Assembly: GCA_026399075.1 (NCBI GenBank)
Contig: JAPLRR010000076.1
Span: 1-64,000 of the forward strand
Source: Methylococcales bacterium
GTDB taxonomy: Bacteria > Pseudomonadota > Gammaproteobacteria > Methylococcales > Methylomonadaceae
DNA: 64,000 nucleotides
Direction of reading: 5' to 3'
Under the pieces are notes generated by a model. That model saw only the letters and a list, made by a program, of their open reading frames with translations, searched no databases and was not told where the DNA came from. Position numbers and translations under genes: made by a program. The stretch's first letter is position 1, and each line of letters starts with the position of its first letter. Positions 497 through 46,381 of the stretch are shown here, one piece after another.

Positions 497-586
497 GTAA
501 CTTCTCATTAGTGGCGGGATAAAGACCTGCGAGGTTTATAAAACCTCGCAGGTCTGCCGCTATTGCCTACAACTAATGGGAAGTTA
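497..586. repeat. MITE-like element, family A, copy 1
   Basis: The element begins GTAACTTCTCATTAGT and ends with the near-perfect reverse complement ACTAATGGGAAGTTAG. Centrally it carries a long perfect palindrome (GACCTGCGAGG ... CCTCGCAGGTC) around a TTTATAAAA-like core. The same termini and core recur near 38290 and 46127. It has no coding capacity, so it looks like a non-autonomous miniature inverted-repeat element that needs a transposase elsewhere. Confidence 0.7.
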
Positions 587-716
587 GCGTTTTCACGTTT
601 GTATAGCATTTCGATTTCGGGATATGATCGTGAGGCCGAATCAAATACACGTAACGATCGTCTAGCCGAAGTTCCTATTGGCCAGGCACTATCCAAGTAC
701 AAATACCCAAGCCACA

Positions 717-3700
717 ATGACTGATCCCAAGTTAGCCACACCTAAAATTCATCAAATCTACCATGTGTTTCTCGCCTCACCCGGTGATATGAACGAAGAG
801 CGCGAGATGGTGCGGGAATTTTTCGATGCCTATAACCGGAATATTGCAAACCGACAGGATATTGAGTTTAAGGTCATTGATTGGGAGAACTATTCCACTA
901 GTGGCGTTGGCAGGCCACAAGCGTTGATCACCCAACAAACCTTGGAAGCATTCAGGCCTTCTTTGGTGTTGGTAGTTGGCTTGTTAGGCCAGCGCTTTGG
1001 AACGCCCACTGATATTTACGAATCGGGGACGGAAGAAGAGTTTGCAACGGCTATCGGGTTTCGTAACGAACAGGGTGATTGGCCGGAGATCAAATGGTTT
1101 TTTCGTGAAACGTGGGGGAAACAAGGCCCGCCAAATAATCCCAAACAAGTCAAAGAAGCAGGTGATCAATGGCAAAAAGTACTGGATTTCAAAGAAAAAA
1201 TACAAACCAGCAATCCGCCACTGTATACCATAGATTTTCCAAGTACCGATGATTTCCCCGCTGTTTTTCGCCAAGATCTCGAACTTTGGCTGCATGATCC
1301 TGTGCGCCCTTGGAATTTAAAGGATGCCAACCAAACGGGGATACCAGAAATTGCACTGCCAGCACAGGAATCGCCCTACCTTAAAATTTGGCTTAATCTG
1401 CTGGCCAATGAATGCGCCCATCTGCCGCTGGAAATCCTGGATGCCCGTCAAGGCATGGAACAAACTGACCCTATCGGTTTGCCGGATATTTTTGTTCCGC
1501 TTAAAGCCATGGCCCCCAGCGATGACTGGAAACAAACCCGAGAGCAGAATTTGGCGCTGGCCCGTGACATGGCAGCGGGCGGCAAGTCAAAACCCGTGCC
1601 AGTTTTGGATTTATTGCGCCAACACCGATTGGCTGTGCTGATCGGCGAGCCGGGTTCCGGTAAATCGGCTTTGGTGAACCAGCTTGCTTGGTCGCTGCTG
1701 GCATCCGGCCAACAGCAAGCCTTACCCACAACATTACAAGGCTTGTTGCCCTTGCGACTCATTCTGCGTAGTGTTGATATGCCTGCGGAGGCTAAACAAG
1801 GCCAGCAGTCTTGGCTTTGGGATAGCGTCGAAAAAGACATCAGGGAAACATTGGAAATCCGCCAACAAGCGGGTCAGCACGCTAAAGCGGTACTGGACTC
1901 ACTAAAACAGCAGTTGATGCATCCCCCCGGCGGCCTGATACTGCTGGATGGCCTCGATGAAGTCCCGGCAGTCGACCAACGCCGGTTGCGCTTATTGCAA
2001 GCCATACAAGACCTGGTCGCGTCATTGCCCGACCATACGCGTTTTATTGTCACCGCCCGACCCTATGCTTATACCGACCCGCGCTGGCGGCTGAAAGGCT
2101 TCTCCGCATTTTTCCTGACCCCGTTTGACCAAGAACAACGGGCCCAGTTTATCCGGGGCTGGTACGATGCCGCCCGTAGCCGTTTTATGTTGAAAGAAAC
2201 CGAGCTAAAACAACGCATACCGGATCTCATCGACCGCGTGGAAAATCAGCCCCACTTGCGGGAACTTGCCGAGCGGCCCTTGTTATTAACCCTGATTTCC
2301 AATCTACACGCCAGCGGCGGCCGCCTACCTGAAGATAGGGCGCAGTTATACGAGCGTAGTGTCGATTTATTGCTGCATCACTGGCGACGTGAGGTTTTTC
2401 GGGATAGTGACGGCCAATTGATGCGCCTGGATAGTGGTGAATTGCTCACGGGTTTGCAAACCTTGGCCTATAACGCCCATAAAGCCCAGCAACAGCAAGC
2501 CGATGCTGCCCATACCGCCGACATCAGCCAAGCAGCGATTCAGGCGGTATTTGAGCCGGTATTGGCAAAGTTGGGCCGTGATGATCTGCTGGCATTTTTA
2601 CAACAGCACACCGGCATCCTGATTGCGCGTGAACGAAATCGGTTTGCCTTTCCCCACCGCTCGTTTCAGGAATATCTGGCGATGGGCTGGTTAACGTCAC
2701 AAACTGAGGACAAACTCAGTCCCGAGGTGTGCACCGACCCCTTATGGTGGCGGGAAGTGTTCCTGCTGGCCGTCATCCAGCAACAAAATAACCCCCGGTT
2801 TGCCTTAAGTTATATTCGGGATGTGCTGGATAGCGGCAGGCATCAACCGGAAAGCATCCGGCAACGCCTGTCTATTCTGGGTGGTCTGGCCCTGATGGAA
2901 CTCCACCAGCAAGGCTCAAGTGACTTAATCGATAAAGTACGGCTAGGGCTCATTCAGTTACTGGAAGACAGTACGGCTTTAAACGTCAGTGAACGCGCTG
3001 AAGCCGGTCGCGTGTTAGGATACATCGGCGACCATCGCCCAGGCGTTGGCCTAACAGACCAAGGTTTGCCCGACATTGCTTGGGTAAAGATTCCGCCGGG
3101 TGAGGTCAATTTAAGACATGACATGGGCAGCCTTTTTCAAGTTGAGTCTTTTTACCTAGCCCGCTATCCGGTCACGAATGCGCAATTCCAAGCCTTTATT
3201 GACGACCCTGCCGGTTATGCCAATCCCCGCTGGTGGGCAGAGCTGGCCGCCAAACCCGAAACGCCAAAACTACCGTGCTGGACTGAGGCCAACCATCCCC
3301 GGGAAACCGTTTCTTGGTTTGAGGCGATGGCTTTTTGCGCCTGGTTGTCGGAGCGCTTGGGCTACGCCATCCACTTGCCGACCGAATGGCAATGGCAGCA
3401 GGCGGCATGCAGCGGGCAAGCGGGCTTTAACTATCCTTGGGGGCCGGATTATCTAACTGGCTATGCCAATATTAATGAAACCTGGGGCCATGTCGGTCCG
3501 CATTATTTACAACGGCCGACAGCAGTCGGCCTTTATCCTCAAGGCCATTCCTTACAAGGCGTTGCCGACTTGAGCGGAAATATCTTGGAATGGTGCTTAA
3601 ATGCTTATCAAGAACCCTCCAACACCCAAAAAGCCGGTTTGTTCGCCCGCGTGGTGCGCGGCAGCTCTTGGGACTACTATCATGGCAATGCGTGCGCGTC

Positions 3701-3776
3701 CTATCGCTACTTCAACTCGCCGGACGGCCGTTACGGCGCTTTCGGTTTTCGTGTGAGTTGTGCGTCCCCCATCTGA
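717..3776 (+). CDS. DUF4062-NACHT NTPase with C-terminal FGE-sulfatase (C-type lectin-like) domain
   Basis: A predicted STAND-type signalling protein of 1019 residues. The N-terminus (VFLASPGDMNEERE, then VGLLGQRFG) matches DUF4062, a TIR/SLOG-like effector-type fold. A NACHT module follows, with Walker A GEPGSGKSAL near residues 312-321 and Walker B LILLDGLDEVP near 407-417. Helical repeats come next, then from about residue 795 an FGE-sulfatase/C-type-lectin domain (ARYPVTNAQF, LPTEWQWQQA, GVADLSGNILEWC, FGFRVSC). The frame is also open from a TTG at 678, but the ATG at 717 removes 13 non-conserved residues. NACHT STAND proteins commonly act in antiphage defence with the C-terminus as sensor; that role is inferred here. 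The last 40 codons have the pattern of a DGR variable region. Confidence 0.85.
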   Translation: MTDPKLATPKIHQIYHVFLASPGDMNEEREMVREFFDAYNRNIANRQDIEFKVIDWENYSTSGVGRPQALITQQTLEAFRPSLVLVVGLLGQRFGTPTDIYESGTEEEFATAIGFRNEQGDWPEIKWFFRETWGKQGPPNNPKQVKEAGDQWQKVLDFKEKIQTSNPPLYTIDFPSTDDFPAVFRQDLELWLHDPVRPWNLKDANQTGIPEIALPAQESPYLKIWLNLLANECAHLPLEILDARQGMEQTDPIGLPDIFVPLKAMAPSDDWKQTREQNLALARDMAAGGKSKPVPVLDLLRQHRLAVLIGEPGSGKSALVNQLAWSLLASGQQQALPTTLQGLLPLRLILRSVDMPAEAKQGQQSWLWDSVEKDIRETLEIRQQAGQHAKAVLDSLKQQLMHPPGGLILLDGLDEVPAVDQRRLRLLQAIQDLVASLPDHTRFIVTARPYAYTDPRWRLKGFSAFFLTPFDQEQRAQFIRGWYDAARSRFMLKETELKQRIPDLIDRVENQPHLRELAERPLLLTLISNLHASGGRLPEDRAQLYERSVDLLLHHWRREVFRDSDGQLMRLDSGELLTGLQTLAYNAHKAQQQQADAAHTADISQAAIQAVFEPVLAKLGRDDLLAFLQQHTGILIARERNRFAFPHRSFQEYLAMGWLTSQTEDKLSPEVCTDPLWWREVFLLAVIQQQNNPRFALSYIRDVLDSGRHQPESIRQRLSILGGLALMELHQQGSSDLIDKVRLGLIQLLEDSTALNVSERAEAGRVLGYIGDHRPGVGLTDQGLPDIAWVKIPPGEVNLRHDMGSLFQVESFYLARYPVTNAQFQAFIDDPAGYANPRWWAELAAKPETPKLPCWTEANHPRETVSWFEAMAFCAWLSERLGYAIHLPTEWQWQQAACSGQAGFNYPWGPDYLTGYANINETWGHVGPHYLQRPTAVGLYPQGHSLQGVADLSGNILEWCLNAYQEPSNTQKAGLFARVVRGSSWDYYHGNACASYRYFNSPDGRYGAFGFRVSCASPI
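3651..3776 (+). other. Putative DGR variable region (VR) in the lectin-like C-terminus
   Basis: Codons 979-1019 read V-V-R-G-S-S-W, then D-Y-Y-H-G-N, A-C-A-S, Y-R-Y-F-N-S, P-D-G-R, Y-G-A-F, G-F-R-V. Tyr, Asp, His, Phe, Gly, Ala and Asn at the surface-loop positions are encoded by GAC, TAC, TAT, CAT, GGC, TTC, AAC and GCT, almost all ending in C or T. All of these can be derived from AAC/AAT by adenine mutagenesis alone. The flanks R-G-S-S-W and G-F-R-V are the usual fixed borders. No template repeat or reverse transcriptase is visible in the window, so the assignment rests on pattern alone. Confidence 0.5.
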
Positions 3777-3790
3777 CCACTGCCCTCTGA

Positions 3791-3819
3791 ACCGCTGCGC
3801 TAGCAGCGGTCTATTTTTT
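3791..3819 (+). terminator. 8-bp hairpin with T-run: terminator and/or DGR-type hairpin
   Basis: ACCGCTGC (3791-3798), loop GCTA and GCAGCGGT (3803-3810) form a perfect 8-bp stem with a 4-nt loop, 15 nt past the stop codon. A run of seven T follows after CTA. It can work as an intrinsic terminator. A stem of 7-8 bp with a tetraloop just behind VR is also the form of the cruciform needed for target recognition in known DGRs. Confidence 0.6.
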
Positions 3820-3875
3820 TGCGCCAGAATGCAAACATTGGCTACTAACATAAGGTAGGGCAAACGGAGACAGTT

Positions 3876-3896
3876 TCCCCCTTTGGAAAAGGGGGA
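3876..3896. repeat. Short inverted repeat (9-bp stem) before dusA
   Basis: TCCCCCTTT, loop GGA and AAAGGGGGA form a perfect 9-bp stem. There is no T-run after it. It may be a repeat-associated hairpin or a structure in the dusA leader; no function can be assigned. Confidence 0.45.
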
Positions 3897-3967
3897 GATA
3901 AAGTTTAGGTCGTCACGTCCCGCCTTAAGTGGGTTGCCAAAATATACAACAATAATCAATAGTAAAA

Positions 3968-4975
3968 ATGACAGAATCCAATAGATATACGCAAGAAGCC
4001 CCGAATGACAAGGCGCACAGGTTTTGCGTCGCCCCGATGCTGGATTGGACAGACAGGCATTGCCGCTTTTTTCATGGCCTGATTTCCCGGCATGCGTTGC
4101 TGTATAGCGAGATGGTGACGACCGGGGCTTTATTGCATGGCGATAGCCAGCGGTTTTTGCAACAAACACCGCAAGCTAACCCCATTGCCTTGCAATTAGG
4201 GGGTAGCAATCCCCATGATTTGGCGGTGTGTGCAAAAATGGCTGAAGACTATGGTTATAGTGAGGTCAACCTAAATGTGGGTTGTCCGAGTGACCGTGTC
4301 CAAAATGGCCGTTTTGGTGCCTGTTTAATGGCCGAGCCCACGTTGGTTGCCGATTGTGTATCGGCAATGTCCGCAGCGGTAGCTATCCCGGTCACCGTCA
4401 AATCTAGGATTGGTATTGATGACCAAGATTCTTATGCTGAACTGCTTGATTTTATAGCCACGGTAGCCGAAGGTGGCTGTAAAACGTTTATTGTCCATGC
4501 CAGAAAAGCGTGGTTAAGCGGCTTGTCGCCCAAGCAAAACCGGGATGTCCCGCCTTTGCGCTACGAGTTGGTTTATCAGTTGAAACAAGATTTTCCAAAC
4601 TTGGAGATTATCATCAATGGTGGCATCACCAGCTTAGATCAGGCAGCCGCCATGCTGGAGCATGTCGATGGGGTTATGGTCGGGCGGGAAGCTTATCACA
4701 ACCCCTATTTATTGGCGTCGGTTGACCAGCGGTTTTATGCGGCGCAATCGGGGCCGCTGACACGGTATGAGATAGTGGCCCAATTGCTACCTTATATACA
4801 AGGGCAACTTAAGGCTGGTGTCCGCTTAAACAGCGTGACTAGGCATATTTTAGGTTTGTTCCATGGCCAGCCGGGCGCTAGGGGATGGCGCAGATATCTT
4901 AGCGAGCATGTTGGCTTACTAGGGGCTGATGAAAAAGTGGTCGTTCATGCTTTGACTTATACCAATTCTGAATGA
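3968..4975 (+). CDS. dusA: tRNA-dihydrouridine(20/20a) synthase DusA
   Basis: An FMN-dependent enzyme that reduces uridine 20/20a in the D-loop of tRNAs using NADPH. The 335 residues match DusA length. Visible marks are the N-terminal APMLDWTDRHCR, IALQLGGS, the catalytic-cysteine motif NLNVGCPSDRV (Cys106), GACLM, VTVKSRIG, FIVHARKAW and the phosphate-binding IINGGITS and VDGVMVGREAY. FIVHARKAWLSGLSPKQNR is the DusA-type active-site loop that separates it from DusB and DusC. It stands alone between the NACHT gene and folE, and begins at an ATG in an A-rich stretch without a strong ribosome-binding site. Confidence 0.97.
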   Translation: MTESNRYTQEAPNDKAHRFCVAPMLDWTDRHCRFFHGLISRHALLYSEMVTTGALLHGDSQRFLQQTPQANPIALQLGGSNPHDLAVCAKMAEDYGYSEVNLNVGCPSDRVQNGRFGACLMAEPTLVADCVSAMSAAVAIPVTVKSRIGIDDQDSYAELLDFIATVAEGGCKTFIVHARKAWLSGLSPKQNRDVPPLRYELVYQLKQDFPNLEIIINGGITSLDQAAAMLEHVDGVMVGREAYHNPYLLASVDQRFYAAQSGPLTRYEIVAQLLPYIQGQLKAGVRLNSVTRHILGLFHGQPGARGWRRYLSEHVGLLGADEKVVVHALTYTNSE

Positions 4976-5001
4976 GGCTGCTATTTCATGAATATAAAGG
5001 A

Positions 5002-5088
5002 CGAAGTTGGTAAGGCGACACAAGATTCCCTCTCCCTTTGGGAGAGGGTTAGGGTGAGGGTATTTCAAATGTCGCTTTACCAGCTTCG
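5002..5088. repeat. MITE-like element, family B, copy 1
   Basis: CGAAGTTGGTAAGGCGACA (5002-5020) is matched by an inverted copy at 5070-5088 with two mismatches. Between them lies CCCTCTCCCTTTGGGAGAGG, itself a palindrome, followed by TTAGGGTGAGGG. The left arm and core are repeated near 38376, where the right arm is missing. It is non-coding and sits between dusA and folE. Confidence 0.7.
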
Positions 5089-5214
5089 GCTCCTATATCA
5101 CAGCCTGAAGCCTAGTCAGTCCCAAAGTGTAGGCATTAGGCTGTTCAGTTGTGGCAGCAAGGTCTAGGGTAGTGCTATACTCTCAACTATTTTTTTATGA
5201 TTGGGACGAAAACC

Positions 5215-5757
5215 ATGGAAGAACATTTTGCCGGGATTATTGCCGGGGTTGGTGAAAATTTAGAGCGTGAAGGTTTGATAGACACCCCTAAACGCGCTGC
5301 CAAAGCGTTTAAATTCCTTAATAACGGTTACGAAAAGACGCTGGATGAAGTGCTGAACGGCGCTATTTTTACTGCAGATACTGAAGACATGGTGATTGTT
5401 AAGGATATTGAGTTGTACTCCTTATGCGAACACCATTTGTTGCCGTTTATCGGCAAATGTCATGTTGGTTATTTGCCGCGTGGCAAGGTACTGGGCTTGT
5501 CAAAAGTGGCGCGCATTATCGATATGTATGCACGGCGTTTACAAATACAGGAAAAACTCACCAAACAAATAGCCGATGCGATTGAGCTTTCAATTGATGC
5601 CCGGGGCGTTGCCGTGGTCATTGAGGCCAAGCATTTGTGTATGATGATGCGCGGCGTTGAAAAACAAAACTCGGTGATGACCACCTCGGTGATGACGGGC
5701 ATTTTCCGTAAAGAAATTAGCACCCGCTCTGAATTCCTCAATTTGATTAATAGATAG
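5215..5757 (+). CDS. folE: GTP cyclohydrolase I
   Basis: Converts GTP to 7,8-dihydroneopterin triphosphate, the first step of folate (and pterin/queuosine precursor) synthesis. The zinc and catalytic segment [10 protein letters not shown] is intact, as are [17 protein letters not shown] and the C-terminal VMTGIFR. I chose the ATG at 5215 (MEEHFAGII, 180 residues) because GGGAC lies about 9 nt upstream; an in-frame ATG at 5197 would add six residues. hemH follows after 5 nt, so the two are probably co-transcribed. Confidence 0.95.
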
Positions 5758-5762
5758 GCGTT

Positions 5763-6731
5763 ATGACCACCAAAAAAACGGGCATTTTATTAGCTAACTT
5801 AGGCTCTCCTACCGCACCGACAACACGTGCAGTCAGGCGCTTTCTAAAGGATTTTTTATGGGATCCACGGGTGGTTAATTTACCGCGCCCGTTATGGTGG
5901 TTGATATTGCATGGTTTTGTCCTGCCATTTCGGCCCAAGCGGTCGGCAAAAGCCTATAGCAAGGTGTGGCATGAAAAAGGTTCGCCGCTAACCTATCTGA
6001 CCAAAGAACTGACCGAAAAAGTCGCGGACCGATTTTCTGACCAAGGGGTTTTAACTACCCATGTCATGCGTTATGGTGAACCTTCGATCGCCAGCCAATT
6101 AAGGGCACTTAAGCTGGCGGGTGTTACTGATGTCATTGTCTTGCCTTTATATCCGCAGTATTCATCCACGACCACCGCATCCATTTATGACGATCTGGTC
6201 AAAGAGCTTAACCAGTGGCGGCATCTGCCCAGTATGCACTTCATTAGCGACTATCATCAAAATAGCCATTACATAGCTGCTGTTGCACAATCCATAGAAC
6301 AGGCGTGGGCGGAGCATGGCAGGAATGAACTGCTGATCATGTCTTTTCACGGTTTGCCTGAACAACTGACCAAATGGGGTGATCCTTATTTTCATCAATG
6401 CCACAAAACAGCGGCACTGATCGCTGAAAAGCTGGGGCTTACCGAAAAGCAATGGATGATTGTTTTCCAATCCCGTTTTGGTAAGGCAGAATGGTTGAAG
6501 CCTTATTGTGTTGATACCTTGGAAAAACTGCCAGGCCAAGGCATTAAAACAGTGGATGTGGTGTGCCCCGGCTTTGCCGTCGATTGCCTGGAAACTTTGG
6601 AAGAAATTGCCATGGAAAATAAATCCATATTTATCGAAGCGGGTGGCTCGGATTATCGATATATCCCTTGCCTTAATGATGCGGATGCCCATGTCGATGC
6701 CCTGGTCAATTTACTTGAACAAAAAATATAA
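5763..6731 (+). CDS. hemH: Ferrochelatase
   Basis: Inserts ferrous iron into protoporphyrin IX, the last step of protohaem synthesis, at the inner face of the cytoplasmic membrane. The 322 residues include NLGSPTAP at the N-terminus, LPLYPQYSSTTTAS, the active-site histidine segment MSFHGLPEQ, and the acidic VCPGFAVDCLETLEEI helix that guides the metal. Length and motifs are normal for proteobacterial HemH. It lies 5 nt after folE. The haem genes hemB and hemW are also in this window but in separate units. Confidence 0.96.
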   Translation: MTTKKTGILLANLGSPTAPTTRAVRRFLKDFLWDPRVVNLPRPLWWLILHGFVLPFRPKRSAKAYSKVWHEKGSPLTYLTKELTEKVADRFSDQGVLTTHVMRYGEPSIASQLRALKLAGVTDVIVLPLYPQYSSTTTASIYDDLVKELNQWRHLPSMHFISDYHQNSHYIAAVAQSIEQAWAEHGRNELLIMSFHGLPEQLTKWGDPYFHQCHKTAALIAEKLGLTEKQWMIVFQSRFGKAEWLKPYCVDTLEKLPGQGIKTVDVVCPGFAVDCLETLEEIAMENKSIFIEAGGSDYRYIPCLNDADAHVDALVNLLEQKI

Positions 6732-6789
6732 GTGGCGATAGACTAAGCGCTTACTATGGGTCATCTCCGATAAACATTGGGATTAAGCA

Positions 6790-8388
6790 ATGATGAAAGA
6801 AACACTATTGCAAGCTTGGCAAAATGCTTGGCCAGTTGTTAAATGTAGCAAGCCTTTACCAACAGGTGAGGGGGTTTTGGATGAGGCGGCTTTTAACACC
6901 ATTGAAGTCGATAAGCTATTTGATACCGTAAACCATGCCGCCACAACCATCGGCCAAGCCGTGTTATTTCGGTCATTAGCCCAGCCTTTGGACAGTCTTG
7001 CCGAGATTCAGGAAAAGCAGGCCGCCAGCCTGGAATTACAAAATAATCCGGCCCTAAAAGAAGCGCTTAACCATATCGTTGAAACAGCTGCCAGTCAGGA
7101 ACAAAATTTCTACCTGCTCTTGTTTGGAGAGTTTTTGGGGACTTTTGGTACCGCCCGTGAAAACCATGAAATTGAAGGCTATGGTTATTTGCAATATAAA
7201 AGGGGCATACGCTGCTTGCTTGATTTAGTCGATCAAGTCCAATCTATTGAAGCGCCACAAAGCACTTATTTAAAATCATTGCTTGATAAAATTAAGGGGT
7301 TTGCCGATACACGGGCTTATTCCTTGATGGAAGGGCCGGCTTATATCTCAGAAAGTGGCATCCAATCCAAGCAGGAAAGAAAAAGCTCGTTTTCCCCAGC
7401 CATCATTTTTCGGCCCCGCTTGTTCAAACCCTTGCTGATTGCCTTGTGTTTTGCGTTTGTTTGGGCTTTGGCGCATTTTTTTCCGACGGATATGTTTAAT
7501 CTGTCCGTTGAAGCCATCCCAACGGCCACTATTTTCTTTGTGCCTTTATTGTTGGTGTATTATCCGGTAGTCGGCAGTTTTGACCGGGACAGCTGCATCA
7601 TTCCGCTAAGAAATACTTTTAAAAATGCCCCTGAGGTTGCCGAAACCTTAGAAGCCTTAGGCCAATTGGACGAATTGCTGGCATTTGCCAAATTTGCTGA
7701 TGCTATGGGTAGTGAGGTTGTGCTACCGACATTGATAGCGGGCGATCATCACCGTATTAATCTGACTGATGCCAAAAACCCGGTGCTGGGCAAACAAGAC
7801 CCCGCGTATGTCGGTAATGATTTTATATTGGACGACGATAAGCTAATCCTGATAACCGGCCCCAATAGTGGCGGCAAAACGGCATTTTGTAAAACCGTTA
7901 CCCAAACTCAAGTGCTGGCGCAAATCGGTTGTTTTGTGCCTGCACAAGCTGCAACGCTGACTGTGGCTGACCGGATATTCTATCAAGTCTCTGAAGTGAG
8001 CCAGCTCAATGATGGGGAAGGGCGTTTTGGGACGGAATTAAAACGCACTAAAGATATATTTTTGGCCACCACCCCTAAAAGCTTGGTCGTTTTGGATGAG
8101 TTGTCCGAAGGGACGACCTTTGAAGAAAAAATGGAATCATCAGCCAATGTACTCAATGGCTTTTACCGCAAAGGCAATAGCACCATTTTAATTACCCACA
8201 ACCACCAATTGGTTGATCAATTTGTCCGTGAACGGGTAGGATTGGCCAAGCAAGTTGAGTTTGCCGACGACGCGCCCACCTATAAATTGGTGGAAGGCAT
8301 TTCCCGCGTTAGCCATGCTGACCGGGTGGCGAAAAAAATCGGTTTTTCAAAAGAAGACATAGACAATTATTTGGCGGATGCACAATGA
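6790..8388 (+). CDS. MutS-family (domain V) ATPase with two transmembrane segments
   Basis: A 532-residue protein whose C-terminal half is a MutS-type ABC ATPase: Walker [14 protein letters not shown] (about residues 354-366), signature-like [12 protein letters not shown], Walker [13 protein letters not shown] (about 430-441) and [10 protein letters not shown]. The N-terminal half is helical and resembles the MutS core (lever) rather than the mismatch-binding domains I and II, which are missing. Two hydrophobic segments, about 211-232 ([17 protein letters not shown]) and 245-265, interrupt the helical part and should anchor it in the membrane. Canonical MutS is cytosolic, so a role in mismatch repair is doubtful. 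It overlaps purT by 4 nt. Confidence 0.85.
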
Positions 8389-9587
8389 ATATAGGAACTC
8401 CTTTAACGGCCAATGCCACCCGCGCCTTGTTGTTGGGTAGCGGCGAACTGGGCAAAGAGCTGACGATTGCCCTGCAACGGTATGGTGTCGAAGTTATTGC
8501 GGTTGACCGTTATCAGGACGCACCTGCACAGGCTGTGGCGCATCGCAGCTATGTCATCGATATGACGGATGGCGAGGCAATTAAGCAATTGGTTGCCTTG
8601 GAGCGTCCGCAATTTATTATTCCTGAAATTGAAGCCATTGCAACGTCAGCATTGGCGGAAATTGAGGCAGAAGGCCGCATCACCGTCGTGCCGAATGCCA
8701 GGGCCATACAGCTGACCATGAACCGGGAAGGTATCCGGACCTTGGTTGCCGAAGAGTTGGGGATACCGACATCCCGTTATGCTTTTGCACAAAGTTTTGA
8801 GCAATTGCAAGCCGCAGTCGAGGGCGGGATAAGTTATCCGTGCTTTATCAAACCCACTATGTCGTCATCAGGCAAAGGCCAATCCATGGTCAAAGGGCCG
8901 GAGCAGCTTCAAGAAGCTTGGGATTATGCCAAATCCAGTGGCCGGGTTGATACAGGAAAAGTGATTGTAGAAGCCAAAATTGACTTTGATTTTGAAATCA
9001 CCTTGCTGACCGTCCGTGCCTTGGATGGTCAGGGTGAAATCCAAACGTATTTTTGCCCACCGATAGGCCATAGGCAGGAGCAAGGCGATTACCGCGAAAG
9101 CTGGCAACCGCAAGCCATGTCCGGGGCTTCTTTAGCGTTATCCCAAGATATTGCCATGAAAGTGACGGAGGCAATTGGTGGCTTGGGGCTGTTTGGTGTG
9201 GAATTGTTTATTAAAGGCGATGCCGTGTGGTTTAGCGAAGTTAGCCCTAGGCCGCATGATACTGGTATGGTGACCTTAGTCACCCAACAGCAAAATGAAT
9301 TTGAGCTGCACGCCAGGGCCATTTTAGGCTTGCCAGTAAATCCTAGCTTGGCAAGAATAGGTGCTAGTGCCGTTATTTTAGGTGGTGTTGATGCCCAAGG
9401 CGTGGTCTATGAAGGTTTGGCCCAGGCTTTGTCTGTCCCTGACACGGAAGTCAGGTTGTTTGGAAAACCGGAAGCATTTGTAAACAGGCGTATGGGCGTT
9501 GCCTTGGCTTGTGCCGCCAGCGTTGAAGAGGCTAGGCAAAAAGCGGTGCTAGCCGCAAGTTTAGTGGTGATTAAACCCGTACTATAG
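8385..9587 (+). CDS. purT: Formate-dependent phosphoribosylglycinamide formyltransferase PurT
   Basis: Third step of de novo purine synthesis, using formate and ATP instead of 10-formyl-THF. The 400-residue protein is an ATP-grasp enzyme: N-terminal [19 protein letters not shown], substrate segment [11 protein letters not shown]-grasp [31 protein letters not shown], and metal-binding [20 protein letters not shown] followed by [10 protein letters not shown]. Its ATG overlaps the TGA of the MutS-like gene (ATGA), which suggests translational coupling. Confidence 0.97.
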
Positions 9588-9597
9588 GTAACTAAAG

Positions 9598-10203
9598 ATG
9601 AGAATTGCAGTTGTATTATTGACTTTATTCATCTCAACTGAGGTGATGGCAGATATTTATAAGTTTGTTGATTCAGATGGCCATGTTTACTATACCGACG
9701 AACCTCGGCATAGCTTATATAAGCGCATTATCAAAACCAAACCTGTGCAATATAAAGTGCCAAAAACAATCAGTTATTCAGGGAATTACCTAGGAAAAAC
9801 CCATACCTATTCGGGCGTCAATAAAAGGCGGTTCACTGATCTTATCGAACAGACCGCCAACCGCTACCAAGTTGATCCTAAATTGGTACACGCCGTTATC
9901 CAAACCGAATCCGCCTACAATTCCAGTGCCCAATCCCCCGCTGGCGCAGTCGGCCTCATGCAGTTGATGCCAGGCACTGCCAGACGCTTCGGTGTCACCG
10001 ACCGTAACGACCCCGACCAAAATGTTGACGGTGGCACACGTTACTTAAAACATTTGATCCAGCTGTTTAACTCCGATCTTGACCTTGCAGTTGCCGCCTA
10101 TAATGCCGGTGAAAATGCCGTCATACGTCATAACAACTCTATTCCGCCGTACGCCGAAACCCAAAATTATGTCCGGCAGGTCTTGGCGCTCTATAACCAC
10201 TAA
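9598..10203 (+). CDS. DUF4124 + SLT-domain lytic transglycosylase, exported
   Basis: A 201-residue periplasmic murein hydrolase. A signal peptide (MRIAVVLLTLFISTEVMA) precedes a DUF4124 segment (DIYKFVDSDGHVYYTDEP) and a goose-lysozyme-like SLT domain. The catalytic Glu is in VIQTESAYN, followed by SPAGAVGLMQLMPGTA and AVAAYNAGENAV. Such small transglycosylases cleave glycan strands to form 1,6-anhydro-muramyl ends and serve wall remodelling or insertion of envelope machines. It begins 10 nt after purT but has no functional link to it. Confidence 0.93.
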   Translation: MRIAVVLLTLFISTEVMADIYKFVDSDGHVYYTDEPRHSLYKRIIKTKPVQYKVPKTISYSGNYLGKTHTYSGVNKRRFTDLIEQTANRYQVDPKLVHAVIQTESAYNSSAQSPAGAVGLMQLMPGTARRFGVTDRNDPDQNVDGGTRYLKHLIQLFNSDLDLAVAAYNAGENAVIRHNNSIPPYAETQNYVRQVLALYNH

Positions 10204-10286
10204 CCGCTGTTGGCACATACCTTTGGGCTTTAATGGCTTAACGGTTGGCATTTTTAGGATTTAAGCAAACAAGGACGCCGCATTTC

Positions 10287-11858
10287 ATGAAGCTTAATGG
10301 ATCTGAAGATAGTCGGTTTCGATGCCAAGATGTCGAATCCGCCCTGAAAGAAAGCGAAGAACGCTTTCGGCAAATGGCGGAAATGACTGGCGAATGGTTG
10401 TGGGAGCAAGACCAACGGGGTTATTACATCTACAGCAGTAGCGCCGTGAAGCAAATCCTCGGGTATAAGCCCAGTGACGTTATCGGTAAGCATTACACTG
10501 TACTTTTAACGGCGCAAGACCAAGCCGAACAACATGCCTATTCAACTAGCCGACAGCCATTTTATGCCTTGGTCAACCATTATCGGCATAAAGATGGTCA
10601 TCTCGTTTTTACCGAATCGACTGGGCTGCCCATCATTGATGCCTCAGGGGAACTGCTTAAATGGCGTGGTGTTGATAGGGACATCACTGTCAGGAAGCAT
10701 TTTCAAGATGCCCTCATAGAAAGTGAAAAGCGCACCCGGCTCATCATTGAAAGCGCTTTAAGTGCGATTGTTATCATGGATGCTTATGGGCTAATCACGG
10801 ATTGGAATTATCAAGCCGAAAAGATGTTTGGCTGGTCCGCATCTGAAGCCATAGGCCAGCACCTTGCGGATTTAATAATCCCTCCACGGTTCCGCAATAG
10901 CCACCGCCAAGGTTTGCAGCATTTTTTGCACACGGGGTCGGGCAGTTTATTAAACCAGTTGCTTGAGCATATCGCCTTGCGTAGGGATGGTTCCGAATTT
11001 CCGGTTGAACTTAGCATCGCCCCCTTAAAACTGGGTAACAGCTACATATTCAGCGGCTTTATCAACGACATCACTGCCCGTAAATCCGCTGAGCAGAATT
11101 TGCGTGAGGCTCAGGTCACATTGGCCATTGCCCAAAGTGAAATCAATATTGCCCAGCGGATTCAAGCGTCTTTGTCGCCATCCGCACCAATCAAATCAGC
11201 CCAATTTGAAGTCACTGGCCATTGTTTGCCTGCCGCGCAAGTGGGTGGGGATTATTTTGACTATTTCTTTCGGGGTGAGCAGCAACTGGACATGATTGTT
11301 GCCGATGTGTCTGGCCATTCAATAGGCCCGGCCTTGTTCATGGTGGAAACCCGCAGTGCCATCCGCGCCCAAGCCAAGCGCTTGGGCACACCGATGGAAA
11401 CAGTGGGTTTGCTCAATAATTTTTTGTTTGAAGATTTGGATAACGCTGATTACTTCATCAGCCTGTTTTATTTGCAATATGACATCAACAGCCAGCAATT
11501 GCGCTTTGCCAATGCCGGACATCCGCCGCCGCTGTTGTTTAGCCCACAGCAAACAGTTTGTCGGCAATTGGATGCTGACGGCATGGTTTTGGGGGTGAGG
11601 AAGGATGTCAGCTTTGAAGAAAAAACCCTGATGTTGTCCTCCGGTGACGTAATCCTGCTTTATACCGACGGCTTGACTGAAGCAGAAAGCCCAGACGGTG
11701 AATTTTTTGGAATACAGCGCCTTAGCCAATTGTTCATGTCATTGGCGCACTATCCCCCCGAAGAAATCGTCGCCGGATTGTTAAAGCACCTGAAACAATT
11801 TTGCCAAACCGCTGCGTTTAAGGATGATATTACGGTAATGGTGTTTAAACTGGTTTAG
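10287..11858 (+). CDS. PAS-PAS-SpoIIE (PP2C-type) serine phosphatase
   Basis: A signalling phosphatase of 523 residues. Two PAS sensor domains (GEWLWEQDQRGYYIYSSSA with PAC segment WRGVDRDIT, then IVIMDAYGLITDWN with SGFINDITARK) precede a short coiled coil and a SpoIIE domain. Metal-binding marks of the latter are VGGDYFDYF, IVADVSGHSIGPA, FANAGHPPPLL, LLYTDGLTEAES and KDDITVMVF. Members dephosphorylate anti-sigma-factor antagonists (STAS proteins) or related regulators; no STAS or kinase gene is adjacent. I chose the ATG at 10287, preceded by AAGGA, over an upstream TTG at 10245. No transmembrane segment is seen. Confidence 0.9.
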   Translation: MKLNGSEDSRFRCQDVESALKESEERFRQMAEMTGEWLWEQDQRGYYIYSSSAVKQILGYKPSDVIGKHYTVLLTAQDQAEQHAYSTSRQPFYALVNHYRHKDGHLVFTESTGLPIIDASGELLKWRGVDRDITVRKHFQDALIESEKRTRLIIESALSAIVIMDAYGLITDWNYQAEKMFGWSASEAIGQHLADLIIPPRFRNSHRQGLQHFLHTGSGSLLNQLLEHIALRRDGSEFPVELSIAPLKLGNSYIFSGFINDITARKSAEQNLREAQVTLAIAQSEINIAQRIQASLSPSAPIKSAQFEVTGHCLPAAQVGGDYFDYFFRGEQQLDMIVADVSGHSIGPALFMVETRSAIRAQAKRLGTPMETVGLLNNFLFEDLDNADYFISLFYLQYDINSQQLRFANAGHPPPLLFSPQQTVCRQLDADGMVLGVRKDVSFEEKTLMLSSGDVILLYTDGLTEAESPDGEFFGIQRLSQLFMSLAHYPPEEIVAGLLKHLKQFCQTAAFKDDITVMVFKLV

Positions 11859-11881
11859 TGCAGGTTAATCCCCTGCCATTC

Positions 11882-12253
11882 TTATTTCTTTTCGAATAGG
11901 CAATCCACAAAGTGGGCAACTACCGATTGCATTTTGTCGGCATCGGCTATTTGCCCAGGAAATGCTTGGGCGGTGTCTTGGGTGCAAATTTCGTTGCGCT
12001 CGTCAATGGTATCTACGCACTCGCTTTCGCTTAATCCATACCGATTTTTTGCGCAGGATTTTTTAAGTTTTTCTGAAACGTCCAGTAGTATGCTGGCATC
12101 CAAATCGGCGACTTGTAAGGCTGAGTTGAGCACCGCTTTGCCAATCCGGTCAGATGCCGACAGGCCCGTTTGGTCGGTGCCGGCCCCAGAGTTAGATTGT
12201 TTGTACCAGATGGCAACGCCAAGGATAATCAGGGCAAAGATAACTTTTTTCAT
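11882..12253 (-). CDS. Small exported or membrane-anchored protein of unknown function
   Basis: A 123-residue protein with an N-terminal hydrophobic segment (MKKVIFALIILGVAIWY), followed by a soluble part with four cysteines (KKSCAKNRYG, SECVDTID, NEICTQD, FVDCLFEKK). The spacing suggests disulphides in the periplasm. The ATG at 12253 has GTGGAG just upstream; a GTG at 12265 in frame is part of that ribosome-binding site. I do not recognise the family. It converges on the PAS-SpoIIE gene. Confidence 0.65.
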   Translation of the reverse strand: MKKVIFALIILGVAIWYKQSNSGAGTDQTGLSASDRIGKAVLNSALQVADLDASILLDVSEKLKKSCAKNRYGLSESECVDTIDERNEICTQDTAQAFPGQIADADKMQSVVAHFVDCLFEKK

Positions 12254-12467
12254 AGTAGGCTCCACAAGGATTGGTTGGGGGCACGCACCCGACTATACTG
12301 AAATCGGCTGCTTAACCAGGCAAATTCCGGCGAGAATATAGCCTTAGCGACTATTCTTGTCTATAGCTGCACCCAAAAAGCTTAAATTATAAGGTTTGTT
12401 GTAGCGAGGGTGGGGCTGTGAAAAAACGGCTTAATAAAATCCGCAACAGTGTCAGCGTCGGGTATAG

Positions 12468-13439
12468 CTAGGTATTGGCAATGATAATGGCCCGCTTCGG
12501 AGCCGGTAGCCCTTCGCAAGTCAGGTTGGGGTTGTCTGCCTGTAAAAAATCGGCTAGGGAATGGAATTGCATCCAAGGGGTGCTGCGCTGCTCTTCAGTG
12601 CTGGTTTGGGTGACATCAAGCAAACGGATATTTTTAAAACCACAACGCTTAAGCCAGCTCATCAAGGTGGCGCAACTGGGCAAAAACCAAACATTGCGCA
12701 TTTTTGCATAGCGGCCTTCTGGCACTAATACGTCACCTAAGCCGCCTTCTATGACCAGCGTTTCTAAAACCAATTCCCCTTCGGGGCGCAGGCAGTCCCT
12801 TAATTCCAAAAGATGGTCTATGGGTGAACGTCGGTGATAGAGCACTCCCATGGAAAATACGGTGTCAAAGGCTTTTAGTCCTTGGGGCACAGCCTCAATG
12901 CCTAAGGGTAGCACATACACAGGTGCTGCCCCATAAAGCTTACTGACCAGTTGGAACTGCATCACATTAAGGAGCATAGGATCGATGCCTAGCACCAATT
13001 TTGCCCCTGCGCCCAGCATGCGCCAACAATGGTAGCCATTGCCACAGCCCACATCTAAGACCAGGCGATGGGTCAGCGGGGTGATATGGTTTTTTAGGCG
13101 TTCCCATTTCCAGTCCGAGCGCCATTCGGTGTCTATGGCAATGCCATATAAGTCGTAAGGGCCTTTACGCCAAGGGTGCAGGGTTTTGAGTTGCTGTTCA
13201 AGGAGATTGCGGTCGGCGATTGATAAGTCGTTTGTATGGCCTATTTGTATCGCATCGGATGTCAAGCAGCGGTGGCTAGTGGTCAATGTTGGCAAGGCAT
13301 CGATCGTAGCCTGCCACTGCGCTAATGTGCCATGACGGTTTACATCGAACGCCTCTGCCAGTTGTTGCGGCAAAATGTCCATCCACGCATCGGCTTTTGC
13401 ATCCAGTAAGGTATCGTATAAGGGTTGGTAATCCGTCAT
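12468..13439 (-). CDS. cmoB: tRNA U34 carboxymethyltransferase CmoB
   Basis: Transfers the carboxymethyl group of carboxy-SAM to 5-hydroxyuridine 34 of tRNAs, giving cmo5U and wider wobble reading. The 323-residue length is typical. Visible features are WRKGPYDLYGI and DTEWRSDWKWER ahead of the Rossmann methyltransferase fold, the SAM-binding VLDVGCGNGYHCWRM, the cofactor strand VLGIDPM, and FDTVFSMGVLYHRRSP. cmoA, which makes carboxy-SAM and is often adjacent, is not in this window. Confidence 0.96.
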   Translation of the reverse strand: MTDYQPLYDTLLDAKADAWMDILPQQLAEAFDVNRHGTLAQWQATIDALPTLTTSHRCLTSDAIQIGHTNDLSIADRNLLEQQLKTLHPWRKGPYDLYGIAIDTEWRSDWKWERLKNHITPLTHRLVLDVGCGNGYHCWRMLGAGAKLVLGIDPMLLNVMQFQLVSKLYGAAPVYVLPLGIEAVPQGLKAFDTVFSMGVLYHRRSPIDHLLELRDCLRPEGELVLETLVIEGGLGDVLVPEGRYAKMRNVWFLPSCATLMSWLKRCGFKNIRLLDVTQTSTEEQRSTPWMQFHSLADFLQADNPNLTCEGLPAPKRAIIIANT

Positions 13440-13477
13440 TTGCGGGGGATTTTCGCCAAGGGGGATCAGGCGGGCTT

Positions 13478-13505
13478 TAATAATGCTTAAGTAATAATGC
13501 TTAAG
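13478..13505. repeat. Two-copy 14-bp tandem repeat
   Basis: TAATAATGCTTAAG is present twice head to tail between cmoB and the mlaC-like gene. It is short and AT-rich and may be a recent slippage duplication. Confidence 0.5.
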
Positions 13506-13521
13506 TTCTGGGGTGCAAGCT

Positions 13522-13546
13522 AACCCTGCTACCTGATAGCAGGGTT
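13522..13546. repeat. 10-bp perfect hairpin downstream of mlaC-like gene
   Basis: AACCCTGCTA (13522-13531), loop CCTGA and the exact complement TAGCAGGGTT form a stable stem just past the 3' end of the leftward mlaC-like gene. It may help end that transcript, but no T-run follows on the minus strand, so it is not a classic intrinsic terminator. Confidence 0.55.
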
Positions 13547-13563
13547 ATTTGGATAAGCAATCA

Positions 13564-14199
13564 CTAAGAGTTTTTAGCTGCCAAGGCTTCGGAATTGCGT
13601 TTTGCCAAACCATCAATAACTGCATTTAATGAGCCTTTGGTTTGCATTTCATTAGTGAAAGTTGTGCGGTAGTTGGTCACTAAGCTCACGCCTTCTATCA
13701 TAATGTCATAGGCTTTCCATTTGCCGTCAGCCAGCAGCATCCGGTAGTTGACCGAGACGGGTTGTAGGCCGGGTTGCAGCACTTCGGTCTTGACGATCAC
13801 TTTGTTGGAGCCATCTTCCATTTCTATGGGTAAGTAACGGATAGACCAATCCTTAAATTCGACAAAAGCGCGTGAATAAGTCCTGACCAACAGGGTTTGG
13901 AATTCATGCTTAAAACGTTCACGTTCATCGGGGGTGGCCGATTTCCAAAGCTTGCCCAAGACTAATGACGAAATTTTGTCAAAATCGGTGCTGGGTAAAA
14001 TGGTTTCATTGACGAACTGGGTGACTTTGGAAAAATCCTTGATAAAGGTTTTGTCCTGCATTTTGTTCTGTAATTTTGATGAAGCAGTTTCTATGGCTTG
14101 TTGTGGCGGCAATAAATCAGCTGCCAGTGCACGGCTCATCAGCGTTGCAGCCATGAACACCCCAAAGAAAAACCATAATGTGTAGCGTTTGACGTTCAT
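13564..14199 (-). CDS. MlaC/Ttg2D-family phospholipid-binding protein
   Basis: A periplasmic lipid shuttle of the MlaC family, 211 residues. A signal peptide (MNVKRYTLWFFFGVFMAATL ... ALAAD) precedes the family pattern: LVLGKLWKSATPDERERF, FQTLLVRTYSRAF, VNYRMLLADGKWKAYDIMIEGVSLV and NYRTTF. MlaC carries phospholipid between outer-membrane MlaA and the inner-membrane MlaFEDB complex. No mla transporter gene is adjacent, so it may serve another MCE-type system. The start at 14199 has AGAGGG about 6 nt upstream; the longer frame to 14247 would bury the signal peptide. Confidence 0.88.
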   Translation of the reverse strand: MNVKRYTLWFFFGVFMAATLMSRALAADLLPPQQAIETASSKLQNKMQDKTFIKDFSKVTQFVNETILPSTDFDKISSLVLGKLWKSATPDERERFKHEFQTLLVRTYSRAFVEFKDWSIRYLPIEMEDGSNKVIVKTEVLQPGLQPVSVNYRMLLADGKWKAYDIMIEGVSLVTNYRTTFTNEMQTKGSLNAVIDGLAKRNSEALAAKNS

Positions 14200-14275
14200 A
14201 AAACCCTCTAATTTCAAGCCAGTGTAAGATGCCCTATTTTTCAACAATCAGCGGGTTCATTCCCTGATACAATAA

Positions 14276-16191
<1,916 letters not shown>

Positions 16192-38289: not shown

Positions 38290-38452
38290 GTAACTTCTTA
38301 TTAATGACAGGATAAAGACCTGCGAGGTTTATAAAACTTCGCAGGCCTTCTGCTTTTACCTACAACTATAGAGTGCGAAGTTGGTAAGGCGACACCAGAT
38401 CCCCTCTCCCTTTGGGAGAGGGTTAGGGTGAGGGTATTTAATGAGAAGTTAC
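38290..38452. repeat. MITE-like element, family A, copy 2 (interrupted)
   Basis: Left end GTAACTTCTTATTAAT, central GACCTGCGAGG ... CTTCGCAGGCC near-palindrome and TACCTACAACTA match copy 1. The right end TAATGAGAAGTTAC closes it at 38452. Between them a family B element (from 38376) is inserted, making the copy longer than copy 1. It lies between convergent hsdR and the P-type ATPase fusion gene. Confidence 0.65.
38376..38440. repeat. MITE-like element, family B, copy 2 (nested)
   Basis: CGAAGTTGGTAAGGCGACA and the CCCTCTCCCTTTGGGAGAGG core are identical or nearly so to the element at 5002, followed by TTAGGGTGAGGGTATTT. The right terminal inverted repeat is missing, and the sequence runs straight into the right end of the family A element. 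Confidence 0.65.
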
Positions 38453-46126: not shown

Positions 46127-46190
46127 GTAACTTCTCATTAATTATAGGCAATTGCGGCAGACCAGCGAGGTTTTAAAAACCTCGCTGGTC
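46127..46190. repeat. MITE-like element, family A, copy 3 (partial)
   Basis: The left end GTAACTTCTCATTAAT matches the other copies and the centre is a perfect palindrome GACCAGCGAGG ... CCTCGCTGGTC (46160-46190) around TTTTAAAAA. No right end with AAGTTAC is found. It lies ahead of rhlE and may form a transcript-end hairpin for the GTPase gene. Confidence 0.55.
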
Positions 46191-46381
46191 TTTAATGACA
46201 AGATACTGCATTTGTTCGCCCCCTGCATAAATATCTTAGCGGTATCCCTAGTCGGATGGCAGCGCCCCCATCGACTATATAAAAATATCGGCGATTTTTA
46301 CCGTATACTGTTACTTTGTAACACGCCCAACAGCGCATCACCTTTTGAAAGTGCTGGGCAGACTATTTAAAGAGGTTATTA

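What the first reader, a model, noticed from the sequence alone, without database searches (positions are those of the whole stretch)
3651..3776. Likely DGR variable region at the 3' end of a NACHT protein, with no reverse transcriptase in the window
The last 40 codons have fixed borders (R-G-S-S-W and G-F-R-V), and the codons between them are mostly NNC/NNT (GAC, TAC, TAT, CAT, GGC, TTC, AAC, GCT) at exactly the lectin-loop positions. All of these can come from AAC/AAT by adenine-specific mutagenesis. FGE/C-lectin domains are the standard target fold of DGRs. No RT or adenine-rich template lies in the 64 kb, so the gene could be a remote target mutated in trans, or a frozen former target.
Basis: partly seen in the sequence, partly recalled or inferred. 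Interest (0 to 1): 0.8.

Follow-up and report, generated by a model that had tools for sequence, protein, structure and literature searches.

The report
Orphaned hypermutation target in immune-like gene
The end of this bacterial sensor-like gene looks like a patch that a mutation-making retroelement once rewrote, but no matching copying machine or template was found in the assembled genome, so the patch is most likely a leftover, of a kind already described in other bacteria.

Summary
The gene at 717-3776 encodes DUF4062-NACHT-FGE-sulfatase; its last 39 codons (3657-3773) look like a real DGR variable repeat. The closest full-length homologue (L029, 57%) has a DGR reverse transcriptase and template beside it; its two VRs differ from that template at 16 and 19 of 31 A sites but 0 and 1 of 86 others. 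The window repeat aligns codon by codon with that template: 19 of 31 A sites and 17 of 86 others differ; third base kept in 9 of 10 AAY codons. The 3' border is kept. The core is less alike than the upstream domain in 12 of 12 homologues; five ordinary FGE orthologues show no such excess. The codon bias alone is uninformative. The genome, 93% complete, has one DGR-type RT (C52), whose template differs from the window at 36 of 86 non-A sites. BLAST finds no other template, though it finds C52's for a C20 target. Best reading: a former target, now frozen; a cassette in the unassembled part is not excluded. NACHT-FGE targets and degenerate DGR loci are already published (Dore 2024).

The parts
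717..3776 (+). gene of 1019 codons: DUF4062 - NACHT - FGE-sulfatase (C-type-lectin-like) protein, intact frame
   Evidence: NACHT 8.8e-13, FGE 2.7e-34, DUF4062 3.7e-4, below its curated cut-off; residues 12-193 match PADLOC candidate PDC-S60 at 8.2e-22
1629..2168 (+). NACHT (STAND NTPase) domain
   Evidence: residues 304-483 of the protein read from 720
3138..3755 (+). FGE-sulfatase domain, a usual DGR target fold
   Evidence: residues 807-1012; Foldseek best matches are EgtB/OvsA and FGE structures, TM-score about 0.6
3657..3773 (+). DGR-type variable repeat (39 codons)
   Evidence: aligned without gaps to the L029 template: 19 of 31 A sites and 17 of 86 other sites differ
3672..3743 (+). variable core (24 codons)
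   Evidence: 7 of 24 residues identical to L029 against 141 of 214 upstream; 6 of 24 to G166 against 145 of 214
3744..3773 (+). 3' border of the repeat, IMH-like, ending TCCCCCATC as in the VRs of L029 and L037 (their templates read TCCCACATC)
3791..3810 (+). 8-bp hairpin with 4-base loop (GCTA), 17 bases after the repeat; a DGR target hairpin, a terminator, or both; not decided
   Evidence: (z -3.4); compared with Guo 2011
497..583 (.). MITE-like palindromic repeat upstream of the gene; related copies at 38290-38368 and 46128-46194 and inside the broken RT of contig C48

Best explanation
The gene is a STAND-type sensor protein whose C-terminal FGE domain was once diversified by a DGR of the kind found beside the homologue in L029: an error-prone RT copied an adenine-rich template and the cDNA replaced the repeat at 3657-3773, with the GC-rich 3' border (and perhaps the downstream hairpin) as landing site. 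The cognate RT and template have since been lost from this genome, so the present loop sequence is a fixed choice left from that time and now changes only by ordinary mutation. Shown: homology to an intact DGR target, divergence biased to template A sites, conserved 3' border, no matching template or RT found in the assembly. Inferred: loss rather than non-assembly, the sensor role, and any part in phage defence.
For: L029 has RT, template and two target genes; its VRs differ from the template at 16 and 19 of 31 A sites but at 0 and 1 of 86 other sites. Window against that template: at codon positions 1 and 2 of the core 16 of 26 A sites differ and 5 of 22 others (p = 0.009); the same count upstream gives 31 of 101 and 55 of 257, so the excess is at A sites (core against upstream p = 0.006 for A, 0.79 for others). 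Third bases are kept at 28 of 39 codons against 62 of 179 upstream. The core is less alike than the upstream domain in 12 of 12 homologues (one-sided p < 0.05 in 11), while 5 of 5 orthologues of one ordinary FGE protein keep 18-20 of 24. 3' border kept at 27 of 30 bases. No matching RT or template found, with a positive control. The homologue in G166 (99% complete) stands in a genome where none of the four RT matches has the DGR motif.
Against: The genome is 93% complete in 111 contigs, and the window begins at a contig end 0.7 kb upstream of the gene. 17 of 86 non-A sites differ from the L029 template, so the link is distant. The A-site test rests on few sites; with all three codon positions counted the A-site excess is not significant (19 of 31 against 53 of 128, p = 0.07), and upstream A sites also differ somewhat more than others (p = 0.07). 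The third-base excess has p < 0.05 against 9 of 12 homologues but not against G166, the most similar one (24 of 39 against 120 of 214, p = 0.33), L040 or L041. The hairpin proves little: its loop departs from the published GRNA consensus, it looks like a terminator, and other hairpins are predicted after the templates too. No RT remnant was found next to the gene.
Confidence: 0.75

Rival explanations
1. The cognate DGR still exists, in the unassembled part of the genome or in other cells of the population, and diversifies this gene in trans or in cis.
For: Completeness 93%. Dore 2024 reports structural variants with intact RT and TR beside degraded ones in one population, and trans action as best explanation for some loci. 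In the own genome a C20 target matches the C52 template at all but 3 of 86 non-A sites, so trans action may occur there.
Against: The nearest RT to that of L029 in the own genome is C52's, 40% identical; no template was found. The related gene in a 99% complete genome also has no DGR-type RT among its four RT matches. Another long frame begins 191 bases after the gene, where the RT sits in L029.
Confidence: 0.17
2. The region was never a DGR target in this lineage: FGE C-termini vary by ordinary selection on a binding surface, and the codon pattern follows from the amino acids.
For: Codon bias equals expectation from composition. No RT and no template found. All-position A-site excess is not significant.
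Against: Five of five orthologues of an ordinary FGE protein of similar divergence show no faster change in the same 24 positions. Excess change at template A sites of codon positions 1 and 2, kept third bases, kept 3' border.
Confidence: 0.07
3. The gene is a target of the DGR on contig C52 of the same genome.
For: Same genome, same target fold; C52 has RT, HRDC-domain protein, template and two local targets.
Against: Window differs from the C52 template at 36 of 86 non-A sites; C52's own two targets differ at 1 and 0, the C20 target at 3. The 3' borders differ.
Confidence: 0.01

Closest known systems
NACHT-CLec DGR targets of RT clade 5D, e.g. Thiohalocapsa PB-PSB1 DGR 3 (Dore et al. 2024, PMC10907252; abstract and sections 5, 6, 7, 8, 11 part 1 and 18 read)
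   Same: NACHT NTPase fused to a C-terminal C-lectin domain with a variable repeat; loci without RT or template occur; MITE-like repeats in the loci
   Different: Here the target stands alone with no cassette and no RT remnant found beside it; N-terminal DUF4062-like domain (the word DUF4062 does not occur in the held main text of that paper); no population data. Membership of RT clade 5D was not tested: no tree was made
DGR of the Lamellibrachia endosymbiont, locus L029
   Same: Full-length homologue, 57% identical, same domains, repeat aligns without gaps, same 3' border
   Different: Intact cassette: RT, template and a second NACHT-FGE target
BPP-1 DGR target site (Guo et al. 2011, PMC3240598; passages seen)
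   Same: GC-rich hairpin of 7-10 bp with 4-base loop, 4-34 bp after the variable repeat
   Different: Loop GCTA is not GRNA; followed by a T run, so a terminator role is equally possible

Membership tests
DGR (complete, active element) | DGR-type reverse transcriptase at the locus | tested here: not met
   no hit of six DGR RTs in the window at E <= 0.1
DGR (complete, active element) | template repeat matching the VR at non-A sites in the genome | tested here: not met
   BLAST in a 93% complete assembly; positive control.
DGR target gene (former or present) | C-terminal C-lectin/FGE domain with the repeat at the 3' end | tested here: met
DGR target gene (former or present) | divergence concentrated at template A sites | tested here: met
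   only against the template of a homologue, L029, and significant at codon positions 1 and 2 but not over all positions:
DGR target gene (former or present) | IMH-like 3' border | tested here: met
   27 of 30 bases as in L029 VRa (counted on the codons printed)
DGR target gene (former or present) | hairpin downstream of the VR | tested here: inconclusive
   8-bp stem present, loop off consensus, terminator-like, other hairpins after templates too
DGR target gene (former or present) | clustered variation among close strains | not testable with these tools
   no homologue at E <= 1e-60 in the 34 other genomes of the genus searched
STAND/NACHT antiphage protein | NACHT NTPase with N-terminal effector and C-terminal sensor, protection against phage | tested here: inconclusive
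   architecture met, candidate-defence profile PDC-S60 matched over residues 12-193; protection not tested

The most novel reading that the evidence does not exclude
Orphaned DGR targets are kept as fixed, germline-like sensors: this genome and its relatives show a graded series (intact-looking cassette on C52, likely trans target on C20, NACHT-FGE gene with a broken RT on C48, orphan in the window, orphan in G166), in which diversified loops are sampled once, the mutator is then lost, and the chosen sensor is retained by selection.
Probability: 0.25. Interest if true: 0.55.

Novelty: new member of a known kind. Interest (0 to 1): 0.36.

Why it matters
It adds a free-standing, apparently frozen case to the known set of DGR-diversified NACHT sensors. 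Such cases show what happens to a hypermutated immune-like sensor after the mutator is gone, and they give fixed loop sequences whose ligands could be sought.

Tried and rejected
Rejected: the C52 DGR as mutator of this gene. Rejected as evidence: the NNC/NNT codon bias. Set aside as weak: the downstream hairpin; my notebook entry says that the templates lack it, but the folds show other hairpins after the templates of L029, L037 and L045. A first script for template-VR pairs looked only at VRs on the + strand and gave three hits; one was a palindromic dispersed repeat, the other two were not followed. A script with wrong frame offsets was replaced. In one search the C20b row was mis-sliced and is dropped. 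In one search the G166 row (L079) is shifted by a one-codon insertion, so its count is not used. In one search two of five control orthologues were missed by the motif and were added, where two others gave no usable alignment; the values used are L091, L092, L094 and L093, L095. Template-VR pairing was run on 14 of the 47 related loci, long loci only in part; it found clean pairs in 6 (L029, L037, L045, L054, L057, L063, the last in another gene than the matched one), none in 7, and one doubtful hit in L040. DGR-type RT hits at E <= 1e-5 were found in 10 of 47 loci, several of them only partial (for example L035, L055, L068). Plasmid records gave 2 matches at E <= 1e-40, each over 59% of the protein or less, phage records none at E <= 1e-20. 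Three paper searches for DGRs with Methylo and formylglycine, with Methylococc, or with Crenothrix gave no paper.

Full report
What is there. The window is the first 64 kb of contig C87 of a 4.08 Mb assembly in 111 contigs, 93% complete. The gene at 717-3776 encodes 1019 residues with a weak DUF4062 match, a NACHT domain and an FGE-sulfatase domain; its N-terminal part matches the PADLOC candidate PDC-S60. The finding concerns the last 39 codons. The codon argument does not stand by itself: 20 of 24 core codons end in C or T, but 20.5 are expected from the amino acids present.

Comparison with an intact DGR. One scan of the genome-contig collection returned 47 related loci. The closest full-length one, L029 from a Lamellibrachia endosymbiont, has the same domains, an RT with the DGR-like motif GLPIGNLTSQ next to it (motif recalled as DGR-type), a template, and a second NACHT-FGE target. 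Its two VRs differ from the template at 16 and 19 of 31 A sites and at 0 and 1 of 86 other sites. The window repeat aligns with this template without a gap: 19 of 31 A sites and 17 of 86 other sites differ. All ten AAY codons of the template face an NNY codon in the window, nine with the same third base. At codon positions 1 and 2 of the core, A sites are changed more often than the same kind of site upstream in the domain (16 of 26 against 31 of 101, p = 0.006), whereas non-A sites are not (5 of 22 against 55 of 257, p = 0.79). Over all codon positions of the repeat the A-site excess is weaker (19 of 31 against 53 of 128, p = 0.07), while non-A sites are better kept than upstream (17 of 86 against 150 of 409 changed, p = 0.002). 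Third bases are kept far better in the repeat than upstream (28 of 39 against 62 of 179). DGR-type RTs were hit in 10 of the 47 loci.

Hypervariation. The 24-codon core is less alike than the upstream part of the FGE domain in 12 of 12 homologues compared, with one-sided p below 0.05 in 11; the exception is L038. Two homologues from Methylococcaceae bins, L038 and L046, are identical at 174 of 209 positions upstream and 6 of 24 in the core (p = 1e-8). As a control, five orthologues of one ordinary FGE protein of the same genome (C47) keep 18 to 20 of the same 24 positions while the upstream part is 68-73% identical. So the variation is not a general property of FGE C-termini. The excess of kept third bases has p below 0.05 against 9 of the 12 homologues; against G166, the most similar one, L040 and L041 it does not.

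Target-site anatomy. The 3' border of the window repeat matches that of L029 VRa at 27 of 30 bases as printed and carries the same C that distinguishes VR from template in L029 and L037 (TCCCCCATC against TCCCACATC). Seventeen bases further lies an 8-bp hairpin with a 4-base loop (z -3.4 against shuffles). GC-rich hairpins also follow VRs of L029, L037 and L045 and the G166 repeat, but different hairpins are predicted after the templates of L029, L037 and L045 as well. Guo 2011 describes a hairpin as part of the target site, with loop GRNA (passages); the window loop GCTA does not fit, and the T run after it makes it terminator-like. I therefore give the hairpin little weight.

Where is the mutator? 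Five RVT_1 matches were found in the own genome. Only that on C52 has the DGR-like motif (GLPIGSLTSQ, YMDD); the others look like group II intron and Cas1-linked RTs (my reading of the translations). C52 also has an HRDC-domain protein, an AAA_5 ATPase that I take as MoxR-like, a trypsin-domain protein, a template and two local targets. Its template fits its own targets (1 and 0 of 86 non-A differences) and nearly fits a target on C20 (3 of 86), but not the window (36 of 86). BLAST of the window repeat finds no other template in the own genome or in G166; its best other matches are 44 bases of the G166 homologue itself and short pieces of other genes. The L029 RT finds C52 at 40% as its best match, and the L029 template finds nothing better than E = 0.008. 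The same kind of BLAST with the C20 repeat finds the C52 template at 84%, so the search can find templates. G166, 99% complete, carries a homologue (67% and 64% identical in its two parts) without residues 615-713, and has four RT matches, none with the DGR motif.

Decay elsewhere. On C48 of the own genome another NACHT-FGE gene is followed by a C-terminal remnant of a DGR-like RT, split by a MITE-like repeat whose relatives lie upstream of the window gene and elsewhere. In L031 the repeat differs from the L029 template at 22 of 31 A sites and 1 of 86 others, no RT was hit in its 18 kb, and the frame carries a stop in the FGE domain. Three RT matches lie elsewhere in that genome; the short loci around them hold no matching template. 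These cases suggest that targets can outlive their cassettes.

Verdict. The repeat is very probably of DGR origin and most probably frozen. The kind is known: Dore 2024 describes NACHT-CLec targets and degenerate loci in Thiohalocapsa, with MITE-like repeats replacing key components such as the RT gene. What is new here is this member and its company of decaying loci.

Noticed in passing
L022 (own genome C52) 8016-16040: A complete-looking second-type DGR: RT, HRDC-domain protein, template, two FGE targets, AAA_5 ATPase and trypsin-domain protein.
   Followed up: partly
L024 (own genome C20) 8937-11807: FGE target whose repeat differs from the C52 template at 16 of 31 A sites and 3 of 86 others: a likely remote target in trans.
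   Followed up: partly
L023 (own genome C19) 549-4291: Two adjacent FGE targets with VR-like ends (25 differences between them) that do not fit the C52 template (16 and 21 of 86 non-A differences); no RT hit on the 8-kb contig.
   Followed up: partly
L026 (own genome C48) 3465-6963: NACHT-FGE gene followed by a DGR-like RT remnant split by a MITE-like repeat.
   Followed up: partly
L025 2697-4079 and L027 4348-5547: Two TIR-FGE genes with similar fixed borders and different loops; possible further former targets.
   Followed up: no
L031, match 8001-10025: Nearly pristine VR relative to the L029 template, in a frame with a stop in the FGE domain and no RT hit in the locus.
   Followed up: partly
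L038 and L046: Close homologues with mostly different cores (6 of 24 identical); DGR-type RTs exist in their genomes, but the templates seen in those short RT loci do not fit.
   Followed up: partly
window 3876-3896: Perfect 9-bp inverted repeat with a 3-base loop between the gene and the next frame.
   Followed up: no
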